In this document: positions 55,597 to 63,916 of the stretch, in pieces | Layout of the letters: each line of letters opens with the position of its first letter | Numbering within the stretch: the stretch's first letter is position 1 | NCBI RefSeq assembly: GCF_009712035.1 | Contig: NZ_VILB01000013.1 | Location: forward strand, 371,555 to 435,554 | Reading direction: 5' to 3' | DNA: 64,000 nt | Source of the DNA: Anabaena sp. UHCC 0187 | GTDB lineage: Bacteria; Cyanobacteriota; Cyanobacteriia; Cyanobacteriales; Nostocaceae | The notes under the pieces: generated by a model | Told to the model about the DNA's origin: nothing | Databases searched by the model: none | The model's input: the letters and a program-made list of their open reading frames with translations, nothing else | Program-made: the position numbers and the translations under genes

Positions 55597-57654
55597 ATGG
55601 GCAAGGTAGTTGGCATCGACTTGGGTACAACCAACTCAGTAGTCGCCGTCATGGAGGGTGGCAAGCCGGTGGTGATTGCCAATGCAGAAGGAATGCGAAC
55701 AACCCCCTCCGTCGTTGGCTTTAGTAAAGAAGGTGAAAGGGTTGTGGGGCAAATGGCCAGACGGCAAACCGTCCTTAATCCCCAAAATACCTTTTTTGCG
55801 GTGAAACGCTTCATTGGGCGCAAGTATGGCGAATTAAACCCAGATTCTAAGCGTGTTCCTTACACTATTCGCAAAGATGAAATTGGCAATATTAAAGTTG
55901 CCTGTCCCCGGCTGAATAAGGAATTTTCCCCAGAAGAAATTTCGGCCATGGTGCTGAAAAAATTAGCTGATGATGCTAGTCGTTATTTAGGTGAACCTGT
56001 TACCGGGGCTGTAATTACTGTTCCGGCTTATTTTAATGATTCCCAACGCCAAGCTACCCGTGACGCGGGCAGAATTGCCGGTTTAGATGTTTTACGGATT
56101 CTCAACGAACCCACAGCGGCATCTTTGGCTTACGGATTAGATCGAGGTTATACAGAAACTATTCTCGTGTTTGATTTGGGTGGGGGAACTTTTGATGTTT
56201 CCCTGCTAGATGTGGGTGACGGCGTATTTGAGGTTAAATCTACCAGTGGAGATACTCAACTTGGTGGTAATGATTTTGACCGAAAAGTAGTTGATTGGTT
56301 GGCGGAACAGTTTTTAGAAGCAGAAGGTGTAGATTTAAGACGCGATCGCCAAGCTTTGCAACGGTTAATGGAAGCCGCAGAAAAGGCTAAAATTGAGCTT
56401 TCTGCCGTCAGTGTCACCGATATTAATTTACCCTTCATTACCGCCACAGAGGACGGGCCAAAACACCTAGAAACTCGCCTGACGCGATCGCAATTTGAAG
56501 GTTTATGTATAGACTTACTCAGCAGATTAAGAACACCTGTCAAACGGGCATTAAAAGATGCCGGACTTTCTCCTGTAGATATTGAAGAAGTCGTATTAGT
56601 TGGTGGTTCTACGAGAATGCCCATGGTGAAACAGCTAGTTCAAGACTTAATTGGCATTGAACCCAACGAAAACGTCAATCCTGATGAAGTCGTCGCTATT
56701 GGTGCAGCGATTCAGGGCAGCATTCTCGCTGGGGAACTTAAAGATATTCTCCTCTTAGATGTCACACCCCTATCTATGGGCTTAGAAACTATCGGTGGTG
56801 TGATGAAAAAACTCATCCCCCGGAATACAACTATCCCCGTGCGTCGTTCTGACATTTTTTCTACTTCGGAAAATAACCAAAATAGCGTAGAAATCAATGT
56901 GGTTCAGGGTGAAAGGGACATGGCCACAGATAACAAATCCTTGGGACGGTTTAAACTCTATGGCATTCCTCCCGCACCCAGGGGCATTCCCCAAGTGCAA
57001 GTATCTTTTGATATTGATGCTAATGGGATTTTACAGGTAACAGCCCTAGATCGGACTACTGGCAGAGAACAAAGCATTACTATTCAAGGCGCTTCTACTT
57101 TAAGTGAGTCAGAAGTTAACCGCATGATTCAGGATGCCGAAAAATACGCCGATGTTGATAGAGAAAGGAAGGAACGAGTTGAAAAACGTACCCGCGCCGA
57201 AGCGTTAATACTACAAGCAGAACGACAACTGCGAGAAGTAGCTTTGGAAATGGGAATGCAATTTGCCCGTAACCGTCGTCAACGCATTGATAATATTTGC
57301 CGGAATTTACGAGAAAGTTTACAAGCTGACGAAGATCGGGGGATTGATCAGGCTTATGCTGATTTACAAGATGCTCTGTATGAACTGAATAGAGAAGTCC
57401 GTCAGTATTATGCTGAGGATGAAGATGAAGATTTATTTGGTGCTATCCGTGACATCTTTGTGGGTGAAAAAGAAAAAGAACCGGAACGGGATGTTTACAG
57501 AGATAACTATCGGCAACGAGACTCTTCTAACCGAGGTGTTAACAGGGATTATGGTAGGGAAAATCAAAATCGTTCTCCCAATTATGAACGTCCCACTCGT
57601 AGCAAACGCCCCAGCTATCAGGATAACTGGGATGATGACGATGATTGGTTATAA
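55597..57654 (+). CDS. dnaK3: Chaperone DnaK3
   Basis: A 685-residue Hsp70. The nucleotide-binding domain starts [18 protein letters not shown] and has [17 protein letters not shown] and the phosphate loop [12 protein letters not shown]. The substrate-binding domain is typical to residue about 610. The C-terminus is a long charged tail ending in DDDDDWL instead of EEVD, the feature of cyanobacterial DnaK3, which associates with thylakoids. It is paired with a DnaJ gene. Likely folds or protects thylakoid proteins; this is inferred from the DnaK3 group. Confidence 0.9.
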
Positions 57655-57747
57655 TTCGATTTTAGATTTTAGATTAACTATATTTGATCTACATTCAAAA
57701 ATCTTTCCCAATATTTGATTTGCAGGGTCAGTCATAAGTAGAAGCGC

Positions 57748-57780
57748 AACTGACAACTGACCACTGACCACTGACAACTA
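57748..57780 (+). repeat. Heptanucleotide STRR (AACTGACA/CCACTGA)n
   Basis: Four to five heptamers in the dnaK3-dnaJ spacer, ending 15 nt before the dnaJ start. Confidence 0.85.
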
Positions 57781-57794
57781 ACATTTAACAGATT

Positions 57795-58790
57795 ATGCAA
57801 AATTTGCAGAACTTTCGGGATTATTACGAGATTTTAGGGGTTTCTAAAGATGCCACCAGTGAAGAAATCAAGAAGGTTTATCGGCGTTTAGCTAGGCAAT
57901 ATCACCCTGATCTTAATCCTGGAAATAAGGAAGCTGAGGAGAAATTTAAAACCATTGGTGAGGCTTACGAAATCCTTTCCGATTCTAGCAGGCGATCGCA
58001 ATATGACCAATTTAGCCGCTATTGGCAACAAAACGGCTTTGCTGGCAACAAACAAACTCCCAAGCCTAAAGGTTGGGATAACCGCGCTAACGCTCGTTCT
58101 AGTCAAGAAGTAGACCCCAGCCAATTCAACGATTTTGAAAGTTTTGTTAATCAAGTAATTGGTGTCAGCAACCGCAAAGATCCCAAAAGTAGTCCGGGAA
58201 GTACCAGCACTAGCGACCCCTTTCGCAGTCCCAGAACCAAAGTTGCCTATACAGTCAATACCCCACCCCGTGCCACCCGTCGGGATATAGAAGCTAGATT
58301 AACCTTACCTTTAGAAAAAGCTTATCAAGGTGGTAATGAGAGAATTCGCTTAGAAGATGGACGTTCTCTCGAAGTGACTATGCCCCCAGCTATGGTAACA
58401 GGTCAAACTATCCGCTTGCGAAATCAAGGAATTAGTGGTGGTGATTTATACTTAAAAATTACCGTTGATCCTCATCCTTTGTTTAAACTAGAAGGTACTA
58501 ATATCTTCTGTCAAGTTCCTGTAACTCCCAGTGAAGCAACTTTAGGCGGACAAGTCGAAGCACCTACCCTTGATGGACCAGTAAAAATGACCATTCCTGC
58601 TGGTGTTAGGTCTGGACAAAGATTCCGTCTTGGTAATAAAGGCTACCCCGGCGAAACCGGTCAACGTGGTGATCAATTAGTGGAAATTCAGATAGTAACT
58701 CCCAAAAATATTACAGCCCAAGAACGGGAACTTTATGAAAAATTGCGGGAAATAGAAACTTTTAAACCTCGCGCTGATTTGTTAGGTTAA
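57795..58790 (+). CDS. dnaJ: DnaJ-type co-chaperone (no zinc finger)
   Basis: A 331-residue type II J-protein: J-domain (residues 8-73) with the HPD motif in RQYHPDLNPG, then a flexible Ser/Thr/Asn-rich linker and the C-terminal substrate-binding domain (ARLTLPLEKAYQGG, GLEGTNIFCQVPV-like and GPVKMTIPAGVRSGQRFRL). It lacks the zinc-finger CxxCxGxG repeats. Follows dnaK3, as in other cyanobacteria. Confidence 0.93.
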   Translation: MQNLQNFRDYYEILGVSKDATSEEIKKVYRRLARQYHPDLNPGNKEAEEKFKTIGEAYEILSDSSRRSQYDQFSRYWQQNGFAGNKQTPKPKGWDNRANARSSQEVDPSQFNDFESFVNQVIGVSNRKDPKSSPGSTSTSDPFRSPRTKVAYTVNTPPRATRRDIEARLTLPLEKAYQGGNERIRLEDGRSLEVTMPPAMVTGQTIRLRNQGISGGDLYLKITVDPHPLFKLEGTNIFCQVPVTPSEATLGGQVEAPTLDGPVKMTIPAGVRSGQRFRLGNKGYPGETGQRGDQLVEIQIVTPKNITAQERELYEKLREIETFKPRADLLG

Positions 58791-59026
58791 CAATCAAATA
58801 ACACTCCCCGGTGTGAAAAATCCTGTGAAAATTCAGGATCTTTCCCCCTTATGAACTTGCAAAAACTATATATAAACTGATTGTCTCTACTCTCCAGCAA
58901 AAAGTCACCACAGGTGGTAGTGTAATCCGAATCATAATGAAGAGGTATTCCTGACCCCAAAAGAGATAAAATCACCGAGAATTGATTTTCAGAATATATA
59001 TCTGCAAGTAAAACCGACGGATAACT

Positions 59027-60994
59027 ATGTTAGAACAAGGCAATATCAGTATTCATACCGATAATATTTTCCCGATTATCAAGAAGTCTCTTTACTCAGA
59101 TCATCAAATCTTCTTGCGGGAACTGGTATCCAACGGGGTAGACGCTATCCAAAAGTTAAACATGGTATCCCGCGCTGGGGAATACAATGGCGAAATTGGC
59201 GAACCCGAAATTACAATTACCATTGATAAGGATAATAAAACCCTCTCCATTAGTGATAATGGGATTGGAATGACAGCAGAGGAAGTAAAAAAATATATTA
59301 ACCAAGTTGCTTTCTCCAGTGCTGAAGAATTTATTACAAAGTATGAAGGTAAGGCAGACCAACCAATTATCGGTCATTTCGGTTTAGGTTTCTACTCCTC
59401 CTTCATGGTGGCAAAACAAGTAGAAATTGATACTCTATCTTACCAAGAAGGCGCACAAGCTGTGCGTTGGAGTTGTGATGGTTCACCTAAATTTGTTTTA
59501 AATGAATCTTCTCGGACCACTCGCGGAACTACTATTATCCTCACCTTAGAAGGGGAAGAAGAGGAATTTTTAGAACCAGCACGGATTCAGAATCTTGTCA
59601 AGACTTATTGCGATTTCATGTCAGTTCCCATTAAAATGGATGGGGAAGTTTTAAATAAACAAAAAGCTGCATGGCGTGAATCTCCCAATAATCTCAAAGA
59701 AGAAGATTATTTAGAGTTTTACCGCTATTTGTATCCTTTCCAAGAAGAACCCCTGCTATGGGTGCATTTGAATACAGATTATCCTTTTGTCATTAACGGG
59801 ATTTTGTATTTCCCCAAAATGCGTCCTGATGTAGATGTTACCAAAGGACAAATTAAGTTATTCTGCAATCAAGTGTTTGTGAGTGATAACTGTGAGGAAA
59901 TTATTCCCCAGTTTTTAATGCCTATGCGGGGGGTAATTGATAGCACTGATATTCCTTTGAATGTATCACGGAGTGCATTACAAGGCGATCGCACTATTAA
60001 GAGAATAGGAGATTATATAGCCAAGAAAGTTGGCGATAGACTCAAAGAATTATACCGTGATAACCGCGAACAATACGTAACAGCTTGGAAAGATTTGGGA
60101 ACATTCGTTAAATTTGGCGTTCTCAACGATGATAAATTCAAAAAACAAGTTGAAGATATTATCATCTTCCGCAGCACAGCCAAATTAGAAGCACCAGTAG
60201 CTGAAACCGCAGCCGTTGAAGTCCAATCTTCAGAAGATGATGCGTGGCAAGATGTCACCCCCACAAACACCACCAGCATCCCCTACAGCACCCTGAAAGA
60301 ATACCTCGAACGCAACAAAGAACGTCACGAAAATAAGGTATTTTATAGCACCGATGGAGCTAGTCAATCCACTTATATTGAACTCCACAAAAATCAAGGC
60401 TTAGAAGTCCTATATATGGACTCCTTCATTGATACCCACTTCATTAACTTCCTAGAACAAGAATATCGGGATGTTAAATTTACACGGGTAGACTCTGACC
60501 TAGATAATACTCTCCTAGAGGATAAAACCGGCGAAATTGTTGACCCCACCACCAACAAAACCAAAGGAGAAGTCGTTAAAGAAATATTTGAGAAAGCCCT
60601 CAACAAGCCAAAACTCAACATTCGTACCGAGTCCCTGAAATCAGACGACCCTCAAGGAACACCACCAGCAATGGTACTCTTACCAGAAATGCTACGTCGT
60701 CTGCGAGAAATGAGCGCAATGATGCAGCAACAAAACGCTGAATTTCCTGAAGAACATATTTTACTAATCAATACTGCTCACCCGTTAATTCAAAACCTGG
60801 TTAATCTCAGCCAAGGTACTATTATTCAAGGTGATGGTGAATCCACATCCAGCCAATTGGTAAACATGATGTGTCAGCACGTTTATGATTTGGCGCTGAT
60901 ATCTCAAAAAGGCTTTGATGCAGACGGGATGAAATCCTTTGTAGAACGTTCTAATGACGTACTTACCAAGCTAACAGAACAAGCCGGCAAATAA
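59027..60994 (+). CDS. htpG: Chaperone HtpG (Hsp90)
   Basis: A 655-residue Hsp90. The N-terminal ATPase site reads LRELVSNGVDAIQKL, ISDNGIGMTAEEV and HFGLGFYSSFMVA. The middle domain holds NVSRSALQGDRTIKRI, and the C-terminal dimer domain is complete. In Anabaena-type cyanobacteria HtpG helps with phycobiliprotein and heat-stress protection. Preceded by a 236-nt spacer without a clear CIRCE element. A stem-loop shared with brnA follows. Confidence 0.95.
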   Translation: MLEQGNISIHTDNIFPIIKKSLYSDHQIFLRELVSNGVDAIQKLNMVSRAGEYNGEIGEPEITITIDKDNKTLSISDNGIGMTAEEVKKYINQVAFSSAEEFITKYEGKADQPIIGHFGLGFYSSFMVAKQVEIDTLSYQEGAQAVRWSCDGSPKFVLNESSRTTRGTTIILTLEGEEEEFLEPARIQNLVKTYCDFMSVPIKMDGEVLNKQKAAWRESPNNLKEEDYLEFYRYLYPFQEEPLLWVHLNTDYPFVINGILYFPKMRPDVDVTKGQIKLFCNQVFVSDNCEEIIPQFLMPMRGVIDSTDIPLNVSRSALQGDRTIKRIGDYIAKKVGDRLKELYRDNREQYVTAWKDLGTFVKFGVLNDDKFKKQVEDIIIFRSTAKLEAPVAETAAVEVQSSEDDAWQDVTPTNTTSIPYSTLKEYLERNKERHENKVFYSTDGASQSTYIELHKNQGLEVLYMDSFIDTHFINFLEQEYRDVKFTRVDSDLDNTLLEDKTGEIVDPTTNKTKGEVVKEIFEKALNKPKLNIRTESLKSDDPQGTPPAMVLLPEMLRRLREMSAMMQQQNAEFPEEHILLINTAHPLIQNLVNLSQGTIIQGDGESTSSQLVNMMCQHVYDLALISQKGFDADGMKSFVERSNDVLTKLTEQAGK

Positions 60995-61005
60995 ACGGCT
61001 AGATG

Positions 61006-61048
61006 ACCGACTTCTCGCAGAAGTCGGTTATAACACTTGATTTTTTTT
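61006..61048. terminator. Shared stem-loop terminator of htpG and brnA
   Basis: A perfect 10-bp stem ACCGACTTCT/AGAAGTCGGT with a CGC loop and a run of eight T about 12 nt further on the plus strand. It lies between the convergent htpG and brnA. Confidence 0.65.
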
Positions 61049-61298
61049 AGAGGTTTTCTTGATGGTTAATATAAGAACGAAGCACAGTATTAATCATTGA
61101 TTGATAGCCTTTTCCCTGGTGTTTAAACCATTCTAAAACGTCACTATCTAAGCGAATGGAAATAGCTTTTTTAGTGATAGGTTTCACCATTTTAGCTGTT
61201 TTCCAAAAGTTATCGTCTAATTCGGGAATATCGGCGGTATCAATGGCAGAATCTGGGATATTTTGGATTTCTTCAAGACGTTTCGGCGAGATATTCAT
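61047..61298 (-). CDS. brnA: BrnA-type antitoxin
   Basis: An 83-residue protein with a BrnA C-terminal ribbon-helix-helix domain: KKAISIRLDSDVLEWFKHQGKGYQ then SMINTVLRSYI. The N-terminal half (residues 1-45) is the toxin-binding part. AGGAG lies 8 nt before the ATG, and the gene begins 26 nt before the end of brnT, so translation is coupled to the toxin's second exon. BrnA binds BrnT and represses the operon. Confidence 0.9.
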   Translation of the reverse strand: MNISPKRLEEIQNIPDSAIDTADIPELDDNFWKTAKMVKPITKKAISIRLDSDVLEWFKHQGKGYQSMINTVLRSYINHQENL

Positions 61299-61537
61299 AG
61301 TATTGTCTCCTTTCTTTAGGGGTGGCTTTTCGGGCTGAAATCAGACGAATTTTGCCGTTTCTTTCGGTATGGGCTACAGTGACAACAATAATTCCTTGTA
61401 TTGCACCAATAGTAATTTCTCTAATTTCTTCATCATAGTCAAATCGTTCATCAATTGACGTAAAAACGATTCCCTGAAAAATTTCTTGTGCTTCCTCAAA
61501 GCTAAGTCCATGTTTTTTCTGATTTTGTTGATTTTTA
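61273..61537 (-). CDS. brnT: BrnT toxin, exon 2 (interrupted by group II intron)
   Basis: The 3' 265 nt of the BrnT ribonuclease gene. Read with exon 1 it gives the family pattern KNQQNQKKHGLSFEEAQEIF, then IGAIQGIIVVTVAHTERNGK and IRLISARKATPKERRQYYE, ending at TGA 61273-61275. Frame and text show no damage. Exon 1 lies 2.2 kb away at 63750-63772. If spliced exactly, the product is about 95 residues, a normal BrnT length. Without splicing, this exon has no start codon at its head. The intron boundary is known only to within a base (exon 2 begins at 61537 or 61538). Confidence 0.85.
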
Positions 61538-61580
61538 GGTAGAGTCGAGGGGGAATATTATTTCCCGCCCCTCTCTGTTA

Positions 61581-61613
61581 AATCTGGGCGTGCGACTTTC
61601 ACCGCACCCAGCT
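61581..61613 (-). ncRNA. Group II intron domain V
   Basis: Read on the minus strand, AGCTGGGTGCGGTGAAAGTC then GCACGCCCAGATT: the catalytic hairpin with GAAA-type loop and AGC start, a close match to domain V. Domain VI follows in the next 35 nt. Confidence 0.9.
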
Positions 61614-61623
61614 TCCGATGTTC

Positions 61624-63201
61624 TTAGCTTTCGCTTTTGCTCATGTGTATATAATCGTGGCAGCTTTTATGAATTGCTAGAAGGTTTTTTGGTTTCCAAT
61701 TGTTATGATTGGCATCAACATGATGAAGATGTACCTTCTCGTCACTGAGCATTTTTAGTCCACAATGACCACATTTATGGTTTTGCCGTTTGAGGGCTTT
61801 AGAGGTGTCGTTGTTATAGAGCTTGCTGTTACGCTCGCTCCAATAACTCAAATCTCCGTCGTAGGGCGATTTTTCACCTTTAACATTGATGTGTTTGTTT
61901 TCGGAGTGAGGAACTGCCGGGAACGCTTTGTCCAGTGAATGCTTACTGGAGTAGCGATTCTGCTTGGTTTCCCTGTTGAATACCCTGAATGCCCTGTATT
62001 GGACGTGGTATAGCGAGTTGCGCGACCCATCCATCTTGCAGTAGCGGTGGTAGTTCCTCCAACCTCTAACTACCGGGGCTAATTTCTTAGCCTTTGTGGC
62101 AGCACCATAATTCGAGTTGTTGACGATGAATTTTACTTTCTTGCGAAAAGCTTTGTAGTTGTCCGCTGAGGGAATACATCTAAACTTTCCGTTTTTCTGG
62201 ACTTTGAAGTGCCAGCCGAGGAAATCAAATCCATCCGTCGTATCGGTTAGCTTTGTCTTTTTCTCGCTGACTTTCATTCCCCGCTCTGCTAGAAACTGAC
62301 TGATTTTGCCAAGTATTTCTGTAGCATCGTCTTGTGGTCTGAGTATTATTACCATGTCGTCGGCATAGCGGATTGTTGGCTCGATAATATCTTTCCTTGG
62401 GGTTTTGTCGGTGATTCTGTAGCTAGATTTCGCATGATATCTATGAATACTTTCAATCCCATTTAAGGCGATGTTGGCTAATAATGGACTTACCACACCA
62501 CCTTGAGGTGTTCCTTGTTCGGGAAACTCTGGGTTAACTCCAGCTTTGAGACATCGGAATATTCCTTGTCTTATACTATACGGAGCAATGAGTCTGTCCA
62601 TGATGGCGGAATGGTTTATCCTGTCAAAGCATTTTTCGATATCGAGTTCTATGACTCTTTTATCTATTCCATTGCAGGATGAGCGTAGATTGTTAAACAG
62701 GATTTTCTGGGCATCATGCGCCGAGCGTCCTGTTCTAAACCCGTAGCTGTATGCGTGGAAGGTTGCTTCGTGGGCTGGTTCTAATGCGTACTTGACAAGA
62801 CATTGATAAGCCCTGTCCGCAATAGTGGGGATTTTGAGAATTCGGGTTTTGCCGTCCTTTTTTTTTGGGATAGGTATTTCACGCAGACCCTGGTGTTTCC
62901 AGTCGTTGCATTCGGTTCTGAGCTTTTCATTCAGTTGAAACCTTTGCTCAAATGAGAGCGCGGTTTTCCCGTCTATTCCCGCTGTCTTTTTTCCAGTATT
63001 TAGCTGTGTTACTTGACGGATAGCCAGTAATCTTGCTGCGGTTGATTTCAGAATCAGTTTTTGTAGGGACTTGGCTTTGCGCTCGTCTCCAACTTGAACC
63101 GCTTTGTACACGCGTTTTTGTAGGCGGAATAAGTTACGGCGGAATTTCTTCCAAGGTAACGTCTTCCAGGATTCACTAGAGTTGTCTCTGTGTCTAATCA
63201 T
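61624..63201 (-). CDS. ltrA: Group II intron-encoded reverse transcriptase/maturase with HNH
   Basis: A 525-residue intron-encoded protein. RT motifs are NTGKKTAGIDGKT (about 68-80), IELDIEKCFDRINH, TPQGGVVSPLLANI (231-244) and the catalytic YADD (279-282), with FDFLGWHF (325-332) in the RT/thumb region. Domain X (maturase) spans about 340-450. A C-terminal HNH endonuclease carries CxxC (HKCGHCGLKML) and HHVDANHNNWKPKN. All parts look intact. It splices and retrohomes the intron, and the En domain cuts the target's bottom strand. Confidence 0.95.
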   Translation of the reverse strand: MIRHRDNSSESWKTLPWKKFRRNLFRLQKRVYKAVQVGDERKAKSLQKLILKSTAARLLAIRQVTQLNTGKKTAGIDGKTALSFEQRFQLNEKLRTECNDWKHQGLREIPIPKKKDGKTRILKIPTIADRAYQCLVKYALEPAHEATFHAYSYGFRTGRSAHDAQKILFNNLRSSCNGIDKRVIELDIEKCFDRINHSAIMDRLIAPYSIRQGIFRCLKAGVNPEFPEQGTPQGGVVSPLLANIALNGIESIHRYHAKSSYRITDKTPRKDIIEPTIRYADDMVIILRPQDDATEILGKISQFLAERGMKVSEKKTKLTDTTDGFDFLGWHFKVQKNGKFRCIPSADNYKAFRKKVKFIVNNSNYGAATKAKKLAPVVRGWRNYHRYCKMDGSRNSLYHVQYRAFRVFNRETKQNRYSSKHSLDKAFPAVPHSENKHINVKGEKSPYDGDLSYWSERNSKLYNNDTSKALKRQNHKCGHCGLKMLSDEKVHLHHVDANHNNWKPKNLLAIHKSCHDYIHMSKSES

Positions 63202-63749
63202 GCTCTGCGACCAATTTGTGTATTCTGAACACCTCAGACCAATTACGGTCTGTCCTACCCGAATTGAAGGGGATTCCGCTGCTCGTCCAGCCTACTTAGG
63301 GTTCGACCGCCCTTAGACCCTCAATCCGTTTTTATTCGTTCCCTCGGTTGATTGTTAGTTCCGTTAGGTGTAGCCATTTCGACCACTGGATTCCCTGGAC
63401 TCTTGCCGCTATCCGAACAAAATGCGGCGGGGATTAACTCCAGTAGAGTCAGATTTTTAGTGTTGTGTCCTGCTCCTGGATGAGTCGCTTTTTGAGGCTC
63501 TGTTTCACCGTGGGAACTCCCCGTTAGCGTCAGTGTCATCTCACAACAGATGTCTGATTACGCCTTCCAGCTTTGACCTCCCGAAACCGAGTCGGGTCAT
63601 CATGGGCAGGTAGGGAGTCATACCTGAGTCTGGTAGATGGGGCTTGCACCCATATCAGACCGAGAGTTCAACCTTTTTCTATTGCTAGATTGGGTTGGTT
63701 AGCTTATGTACGGACTGATTACCGTGATTCAGCTAACAACGAATCGCAC

Positions 63750-63772
63750 TGTTCGTCCCATTCAAATTCCAT
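63750..63772 (-). CDS. brnT: BrnT toxin, exon 1
   Basis: The 5' 23 nt of brnT, encoding MEFEWDE plus two bases of the next codon, directly followed by the intron start GTGCG. FEWD is the hallmark start of BrnT proteins. AGG lies about 6 nt before the ATG. Joined to exon 2, the eighth codon becomes CAT (His) or, if the junction shifts by one base, CCT (Pro); both keep the frame and fit BrnT. Confidence 0.85.
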
Positions 63773-63916
63773 TAGACCTGTAGATACATTTTGTATATAC
63801 ACTATGGTAACGTTAGTGATAAATGGTAAAGATTAAGATTTTCTAAAAGGTTTGATAATACTTGCCATAATTCCCTAGATACTAGATAATTATTCTTTTT
63901 CCCGAACTTGTTGGGA

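What the first reader, a model, noticed from the sequence alone, without database searches (positions are those of the whole stretch)
61273..63772. BrnT toxin gene split by an intact group II intron, with its reading frame preserved
On the minus strand, exon 1 (63750-63772) encodes MEFEWDE and is directly followed by GTGCG, the group II intron 5' end. Exon 2 (61537 down to 61273) resumes with KNQQNQKKHGLSF and ends as normal BrnT, overlapping brnA. Exact joining gives one open frame of about 95 codons, and both exons look undecayed. Toxin production would then depend on intron splicing, while the antitoxin gene has its own Shine-Dalgarno. Group II introns usually sit outside genes or inside other mobile elements; one inside a toxin of a TA pair, with frame retained, is unusual. 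Possible benefit: splicing tunes or gates toxin dose, or the TA locus is a safe insertion site.
Basis: partly seen in the sequence, partly recalled or inferred. Interest (0 to 1): 0.85.

Follow-up and report, generated by a model that had tools for sequence, protein, structure and literature searches.

The report
Self-splicing intron inside bacterial toxin gene
A mobile self-splicing RNA element has inserted cleanly into the toxin half of a toxin-antitoxin pair in a cyanobacterium; its sequence suggests that it can still cut itself out with the toxin frame kept, and its relatives often sit inside genes too, so the case is real but not exceptional.

Summary
A 2,212-nt group IIB-type intron (window 61538-63749, minus strand) with an intact reverse transcriptase/maturase splits brnT after 23 nt. 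Three same-genus genomes carry the uninterrupted gene at the same place with the flanks abutting exactly. The copy has what splicing needs: domain V, a domain VI-like stem with an unpaired A, EBS1-IBS1 6/6, EBS2-IBS2 4/5, EBS3-IBS3 matched. The three contacts were recovered by a covariation scan over 43 distinct insertion sites.

Toxin synthesis probably depends on splicing, since unspliced RNA gives a 17-residue brnT stub while brnA keeps its own start. But this intron family often sits in genes: by a permissive test 23 of 43 sites lie in a phase-compatible sense frame against 5 antisense, including conserved ssb- and cobO-like genes uninterrupted in 15 of 15 other genomes searched. The brnT insertion was seen in one genome only, so a toxin-gating role rests on anatomy alone. 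Best reading: a retrohoming insertion tolerated because it splices. Splicing in vivo was not testable here.

The parts
63792..63801 (-). TGTATATACA palindrome upstream of brnT, candidate BrnA operator or promoter element
   Evidence: position; the 13-nt block TGTATATACAAAA is identical in the 7 loci that I chose to align, three of them more distant; operator role inferred
63750..63772 (-). brnT exon 1 (ATG plus 20 nt; 7 codons and 2 nt)
   Evidence: the 23 nt are identical in L014 and L016 and differ by one base in L015
61538..63749 (-). group IIB-type intron, 2,212 nt, 5' GTGCG, 3' CTACC
   Evidence: empty sites; four further copies in the genome
63476..63480 (-). EBS2 (intron 270-274), pairs 4 of 5 (one of them G-U) with exon -8 to -12
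   Evidence: covariation over 43 sites; letters checked
63414..63419 (-). EBS1 (intron 331-336), pairs 6 of 6 Watson-Crick with exon -1 to -6
   Evidence: 0 of 42 other sites of the family would pair 6 of 6 with it
63377..63377 (-). EBS3 (intron 373, A), pairs with first base of exon 2 (T)
   Evidence: covariation; letter checked
61624..63201 (-). intron-encoded reverse transcriptase/maturase, 525 aa, YADD
   Evidence: Pfam RVT_1, RVT_N, GIIM; NCBIfam TIGR04416 289.1 bits, cut-off 300; dN/dS 0.09-0.15 against nine other copies
61539..61616 (-). domains V and VI
   Evidence: Rfam RF00029, 53.9 bits, gathering 40; fold z -3.29 for 61538-61625
61273..61537 (-). brnT exon 2 (1 nt, 87 codons, stop)
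   Evidence: Pfam BrnT_toxin 79.2 bits
61047..61298 (-). brnA antitoxin, overlaps the end of brnT
   Evidence: Pfam BrnA_antitoxin 65.7 bits

Best explanation
A mobile, maturase-encoding group IIB-type intron inserted by retrohoming into brnT of a brnTA module, at a site matched by its EBS1, EBS2 and EBS3. The pre-mRNA starts upstream of exon 1 and runs through the intron into exon 2 and brnA. Unspliced RNA can give the maturase and BrnA but only a 17-residue brnT stub. After maturase-assisted splicing the exons are joined in frame and BrnT is made as well. The insertion persists because it is close to neutral, not because it was recruited as a toxin switch. Shown: boundaries, frame phase, EBS/IBS matches, open maturase frame, empty sites. 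Inferred: splicing in vivo, transcription path, retrohoming as the route, neutrality.
For: Exact empty sites. EBS1-IBS1 6/6 here and 0 of 42 other sites fit it; in the family 24 of 31 distinct loops pair 6/6 with their own site (best register, G-U allowed) against 4.7% of 930 swapped pairs. EBS1, EBS2 and EBS3 recovered by covariation. Maturase dN/dS 0.09-0.15 in 9 of 9 comparisons made. Family habit: 23 sense against 5 antisense in-gene sites of 43; phase agreement in 15 of 16 sense sites with at least 50 open codons on both sides. ssb-like and cobO-like host genes have zero gap in 15 of 15 other genomes searched.
Against: No RNA data. The intron ends in ACC rather than the usual AY (usual form recalled). 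EBS2 has one mismatch and one G-U. The threshold also passes 14 and 5 sense sites (6 and 3 antisense) when the phases are deliberately mismatched, so part of the 23 is chance. Of the copies in sense frames some sit in dispensable mobile genes. Two of the five close same-genus brnT relatives are damaged, so brnT may not need to be expressed at all.
Confidence: 0.8

Rival explanations
1. The intron is a recruited regulator: splicing efficiency sets BrnT dose while BrnA is made from all transcripts, giving an antitoxin excess unless splicing is efficient.
For: Anatomy: toxin needs splicing, antitoxin does not. Ll.LtrB, EcI5 and BhI1 introns lower host mRNA (PMC6003770, abstract and passages).
Against: Found at brnT in one genome only; the five close same-genus relatives lack it there. 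The same family sits in many unrelated genes. mRNA targeting would hit toxin and antitoxin alike, since both lie on the spliced message (inference).
Confidence: 0.07
2. The insertion has simply silenced brnT; splicing is too weak in vivo to matter and exon 2 will decay.
For: brnT is damaged in two of the five close same-genus relatives, one by a premature stop and one by an insertion of about 100 bp. A review says that most bacterial intron copies are truncated or inactivated (PMC4424553, passages).
Against: Exon 2 has no stop or frameshift, EBS1 is perfect and the maturase shows purifying selection.
Confidence: 0.11
3. Assembly artefact or chance resemblance.
For: Repeated elements can cause misassembly (general knowledge).
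Against: This copy is only 87-88% identical to its genome mates, lies well inside a 780,777-base contig, and its EBS1 fits this exon 6 of 6 but none of the 42 other sites.
Confidence: 0.02

Closest known systems
Thermosynechococcus elongatus CL/IIB1 introns (PMC2882425, abstract part and passages)
   Same: group IIB introns that split into families with diverged EBS sequences and retrohome to different sites; the closest solved maturase is PDB 6me0 (239.9 bits), which I recall as a T. elongatus one
   Different: the paper says only a small number of those introns lie within genes; here 23 of 43 sites pass a permissive sense in-gene test and 15 of 16 a stricter phase test
Trichodesmium group II twintron in Tery_4732 (PMC4649490, abstract and passages)
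   Same: cyanobacterial protein gene interrupted by group II introns; in vivo splicing to a putatively functional mRNA was shown there
   Different: twintron, different host gene; splicing not shown here
Ll.LtrB in the ltrB relaxase gene (PMC6003770, abstract and passages)
   Same: intron inside a gene of a mobile module, host expression depends on splicing
   Different: IIA intron on a conjugative plasmid; host is not a toxin
Group IIB introns in integron arrays with TA operons (PMC7923331, abstract and passages)
   Same: group IIB introns inserted in cassettes with TA operons; BrnT/A systems in the same array
   Different: the two H. halochloris introns in TA cassettes are described as truncated; no in-frame interruption of a toxin gene in the passages seen

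Membership tests
Group IIB (CL-type) intron | domain V catalytic hairpin | tested here: met
   RF00029 53.9 bits, gathering 40
Group IIB (CL-type) intron | 5' end GTGYG (consensus recalled) | tested here: met
   GTGCG here and in 47 of 47 full-length copies
Group IIB (CL-type) intron | 3' end AY (consensus recalled) | tested here: not met
   ends ACC; 43 of 47 copies end ACC, 3 AAC, and 1 (L047) has an unreliable boundary. I recall AY as a consensus, not an absolute criterion, so I still file it here
Group IIB (CL-type) intron | EBS1/IBS1, EBS2/IBS2 and EBS3/IBS3 (as described for IIB in PMC2882425) | tested here: met
   covariation over 43 sites
Group IIB (CL-type) intron | domain VI with bulged branch-point A | tested here: inconclusive
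   fold shows an unpaired GA with the A 8 nt from the 3' end; lariat not testable
Group IIB (CL-type) intron | maturase with RT and X domains | tested here: met
   RVT_N, RVT_1, GIIM; best PDB match 6me0. TIGR04416 is 11 bits under its cut-off
Group IIB (CL-type) intron | C-terminal HNH endonuclease domain | tested here: inconclusive
   no Pfam hit; a Cys/His pattern is visible by eye, but the simple pattern missed it
Group IIB (CL-type) intron | maturase belongs to the CL class by phylogeny | not tested
   class name rests on the 6me0 match and recall
Group IIB (CL-type) intron | splicing activity | not testable with these tools
   needs RNA
BrnTA toxin-antitoxin module | BrnT domain | tested here: met
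   exon 2 alone, profile positions 5-77 of 77
BrnTA toxin-antitoxin module | BrnA gene overlapping downstream | tested here: met
   61047-61298, overlaps exon 2 end
BrnTA toxin-antitoxin module | toxin activity and autoregulation | not testable with these tools
   palindrome at 63792-63801 is suggestive only

The most novel reading that the evidence does not exclude
The excised intron, paired to the spliced junction through EBS1-3, keeps attacking brnT mRNA, so splicing and re-opening together set how much toxin message exists while unspliced RNA supplies antitoxin: a ribozyme-gated toxin-antitoxin module that biases the pair towards antitoxin.
Probability: 0.06. Interest if true: 0.75.

Novelty: new member of a known kind. 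Interest (0 to 1): 0.42.

Why it matters
It is a clean natural case in which only the toxin of a TA pair depends on RNA splicing, with exact empty sites in relatives. More widely, the same intron family in this genus gives 43 distinct sites with matched EBS1-3, many in coding frames, including two genes present in all 16 genomes searched. That is a ready data set for asking how bacterial group II introns colonise genes and what they cost the host.

Tried and rejected
Rfam's 3' end (61539) was considered and rejected: it is one base short of the boundary shown by empty sites and by EBS3 covariation. Translation of BrnT without splicing was considered: by eye, reading upstream of exon 2 in its frame meets a stop in domain VI with no ATG, GTG or TTG between, so I think it unlikely. 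A substitution test on exon 2 was too weak to use. An argument from ssb being essential was dropped because a second, uninterrupted SSB gene exists. Three other BrnT genes in the genome are uninterrupted matches. Phage records gave no match to the intron.

Literature: searches (open-access library only) showed me no report of a group II intron inside brnT or of one in Dolichospermum. Of the 4 papers holding both 'group II intron' and 'brnT' I saw passages of all 4, and of the single paper with 'Dolichospermum' passages; none describes such a case. The other listed papers were seen as listings, except passages of PMC4853749, PMC12702839 and PMC4874684, where the word intron does not occur, and the papers cited in the report.

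Rows dropped or doubtful: of 48 rows, L099 (same copy as L059) was left out, giving 47; four repeats of sites already counted (L073, L080, L081, L085) were left out, giving 43. L047 has an unreliable 3' boundary but was kept in all counts, including the 5 antisense. L066 and L100 (one broken copy) and the ten loci that marks partial were not counted, and further partial matches (many at contig ends of G002) were not fetched. One search found matches in 13 of 16 genomes; the 47 full-length copies come from six of them.

Full report
What is there. On the minus strand, brnT is split after 23 nt by 2,212 nt running from GTGCG at 63749 to CTACC at 61538; exon 2 follows at 61537 and overlaps brnA. 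Exon 2 alone matches BrnT at 79.2 bits and the next gene matches BrnA at 65.7 bits. Inside the insert lies a 525-residue reverse transcriptase/maturase (RVT_N, RVT_1, GIIM; 289.1 bits to the group II maturase model, cut-off 300; best PDB relative 6me0, which I recall as a T. elongatus maturase) and a group II domain V/VI (53.9 bits; fold z -3.29).

Boundaries. Rfam ends the intron at 61539, which would put exon 2 out of frame. The question was settled with natural sequences. Of 100 genomes searched with exon 2 (own included), 83 have a match. Of the 15 other same-genus genomes, 5 have a close relative and 10 only weak matches or none. The three closest (G014, G009, G008) share 251 nt of upstream flank plus exon 1 (95.6, 90.8 and 85.7% identity) and exon 2 (98.1-98.5%), and the two pieces abut exactly with no duplication or loss. 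The intron therefore ends at 61538, and the frame phases fit: 2 nt left from exon 1 and 1 nt before the open run in exon 2.

Splicing competence by sequence. In 47 full-length copies from the genus, the loop at intron 328-338 pairs 6 of 6 (best register, G-U allowed) with the last six exon bases in 38 copies and at least 5 of 6 in 45. Among 31 distinct loops 24 pair 6 of 6; their own-site mean is 5.68 against 4.02 for 930 swapped pairs (4.7% at 6 of 6), and 0 of 10,000 permutations reach the own mean. The brnT copy pairs 6 of 6 with its own site and 6 of 6 with 0 of the 42 other sites. A scan of the variable intron columns against exon positions -16 to +5 over 43 distinct sites returned three contacts: exon -12 to -8 with intron 274-270, exon -6 to -1 with 336-331, and exon +1 with 373. 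These are EBS2, EBS1 and EBS3. The brnT copy pairs 4 of 5 (one G-U), 6 of 6 and 1 of 1. The maturase evolves under purifying selection (dN/dS 0.09-0.15 against nine other copies).

Is the location special? Mostly not. The genome has five copies of this intron. The genus search found matches in 13 of 16 genomes. At 43 distinct sites, 23 have a sense open frame that continues across the intron in the right phase (at least 20 codons on each side and 100 in total) against 5 antisense. The same threshold with phases deliberately shifted passes 14 and 5 sense sites and 6 and 3 antisense, so it is permissive and the antisense count is no better than chance. A stricter test, at least 50 open codons on both sides, gives phase agreement in 15 of 16 sense sites and 4 of 4 antisense sites; at 40 codons 17 of 20 and 4 of 6. 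brnT itself is not in this stricter set because exon 1 is too short. Ten separate pieces from eight hosts were scanned with Pfam: seven hosts gave a hit (an SSB gene, a CobO-type adenosyltransferase, NAD kinase, a nitroreductase, an N6 methylase, a TnpB-type protein and an RRXRR protein) and one, L005, none. The ssb-like and cobO-like genes were found in 16 of 16 genomes; in 15 of 15 others the flanks abut with zero gap, unaligned end bases extrapolated. A second uninterrupted SSB exists, so I do not claim essentiality.

How it most likely works. The candidate operator (a 13-nt block identical in the seven loci aligned) lies upstream of exon 1. Unspliced RNA lets a ribosome read 17 codons before a stop inside the intron; the maturase frame and the brnA start with its AAAGGAG remain available. 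Spliced RNA would give both BrnT and BrnA. Toxin thus depends on splicing and antitoxin does not. This is anatomy; no RNA was examined. Three studied introns lower host mRNA, in one case shown to act by pairing with the spliced message again (PMC6003770, abstract and passages); here that would hit toxin and antitoxin together.

Was it recruited? There is no sign of it. The intron is at brnT in one genome; the five close same-genus relatives lack it there. Two of these five carry damaged brnT genes, one with a premature stop (G008) and one with an insertion of about 100 bp flanked by a 5-bp repeat (G005), so the toxin is dispensable in this genus. Retrohoming with diverged EBS sequences, as described for T. 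elongatus (PMC2882425, passages), explains the site. [quoted passage not shown]

Organism. The genus is probably Dolichospermum in the GTDB sense (inferred). G009's contig has the length and coordinates of a Dolichospermum sp. LEGE 00240 contig; G005's second contig those of an Anabaena sp. WA102 plasmid and G012's those of a Dolichospermum sp. DET69 plasmid. Related introns occur on 18 plasmid records, all with cyanobacterial names (near mode), and on no phage record (distant mode).

Verdict. The functional speculation is possible but unsupported. The finding is a well-formed new instance of intragenic cyanobacterial group II introns with an unusual host gene; I saw no earlier report of one in brnT in the searches listed under Tried and rejected.

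Noticed in passing
L057, L077, L079, L083 and L087, L094, L097, L098: Several family copies sit in sense orientation in or near the start of genes for TnpB-like and RRXRR (IscB/IsrB-like, name recalled) proteins (by eye; only L079 and L087 checked by Pfam): a repeated association of this intron with RNA-guided nuclease genes of IS elements.
   Followed up: partly
L017 (G005), 1398-1510: A roughly 100-bp insertion with a 5-bp flanking repeat (CTTAG) interrupts brnT of a relative, looking like a miniature transposable element.
   Followed up: partly
L016 (G008): The brnT relative has a premature stop in its last quarter.
   Followed up: no
L045 (G002): An NAD kinase gene is split in a compatible phase by the same intron family; both pieces match NAD kinase models.
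   Followed up: no
L006 (G000:C26:1189-1265): A domain V match at 60 bits, not among the five places found with this intron's DNA, suggests a second group II intron family in the genome.
   Followed up: no
window 55597-61047: brnTA lies end-to-end with an htpG-like gene (stop to stop, 52 bp apart) beside dnaK- and dnaJ-like genes (gene names by eye).
   Followed up: no
L086 and L095 (G012:C1:4326655-4331189): Two copies of the intron lie about 110 bp apart in tandem in what is apparently Dolichospermum sp. DET69.
   Followed up: no
L044, L065, L095: In these full-length copies the longest maturase frame is cut to 325, 315 and 243 residues, so not every copy in the family is autonomous.
   Followed up: no
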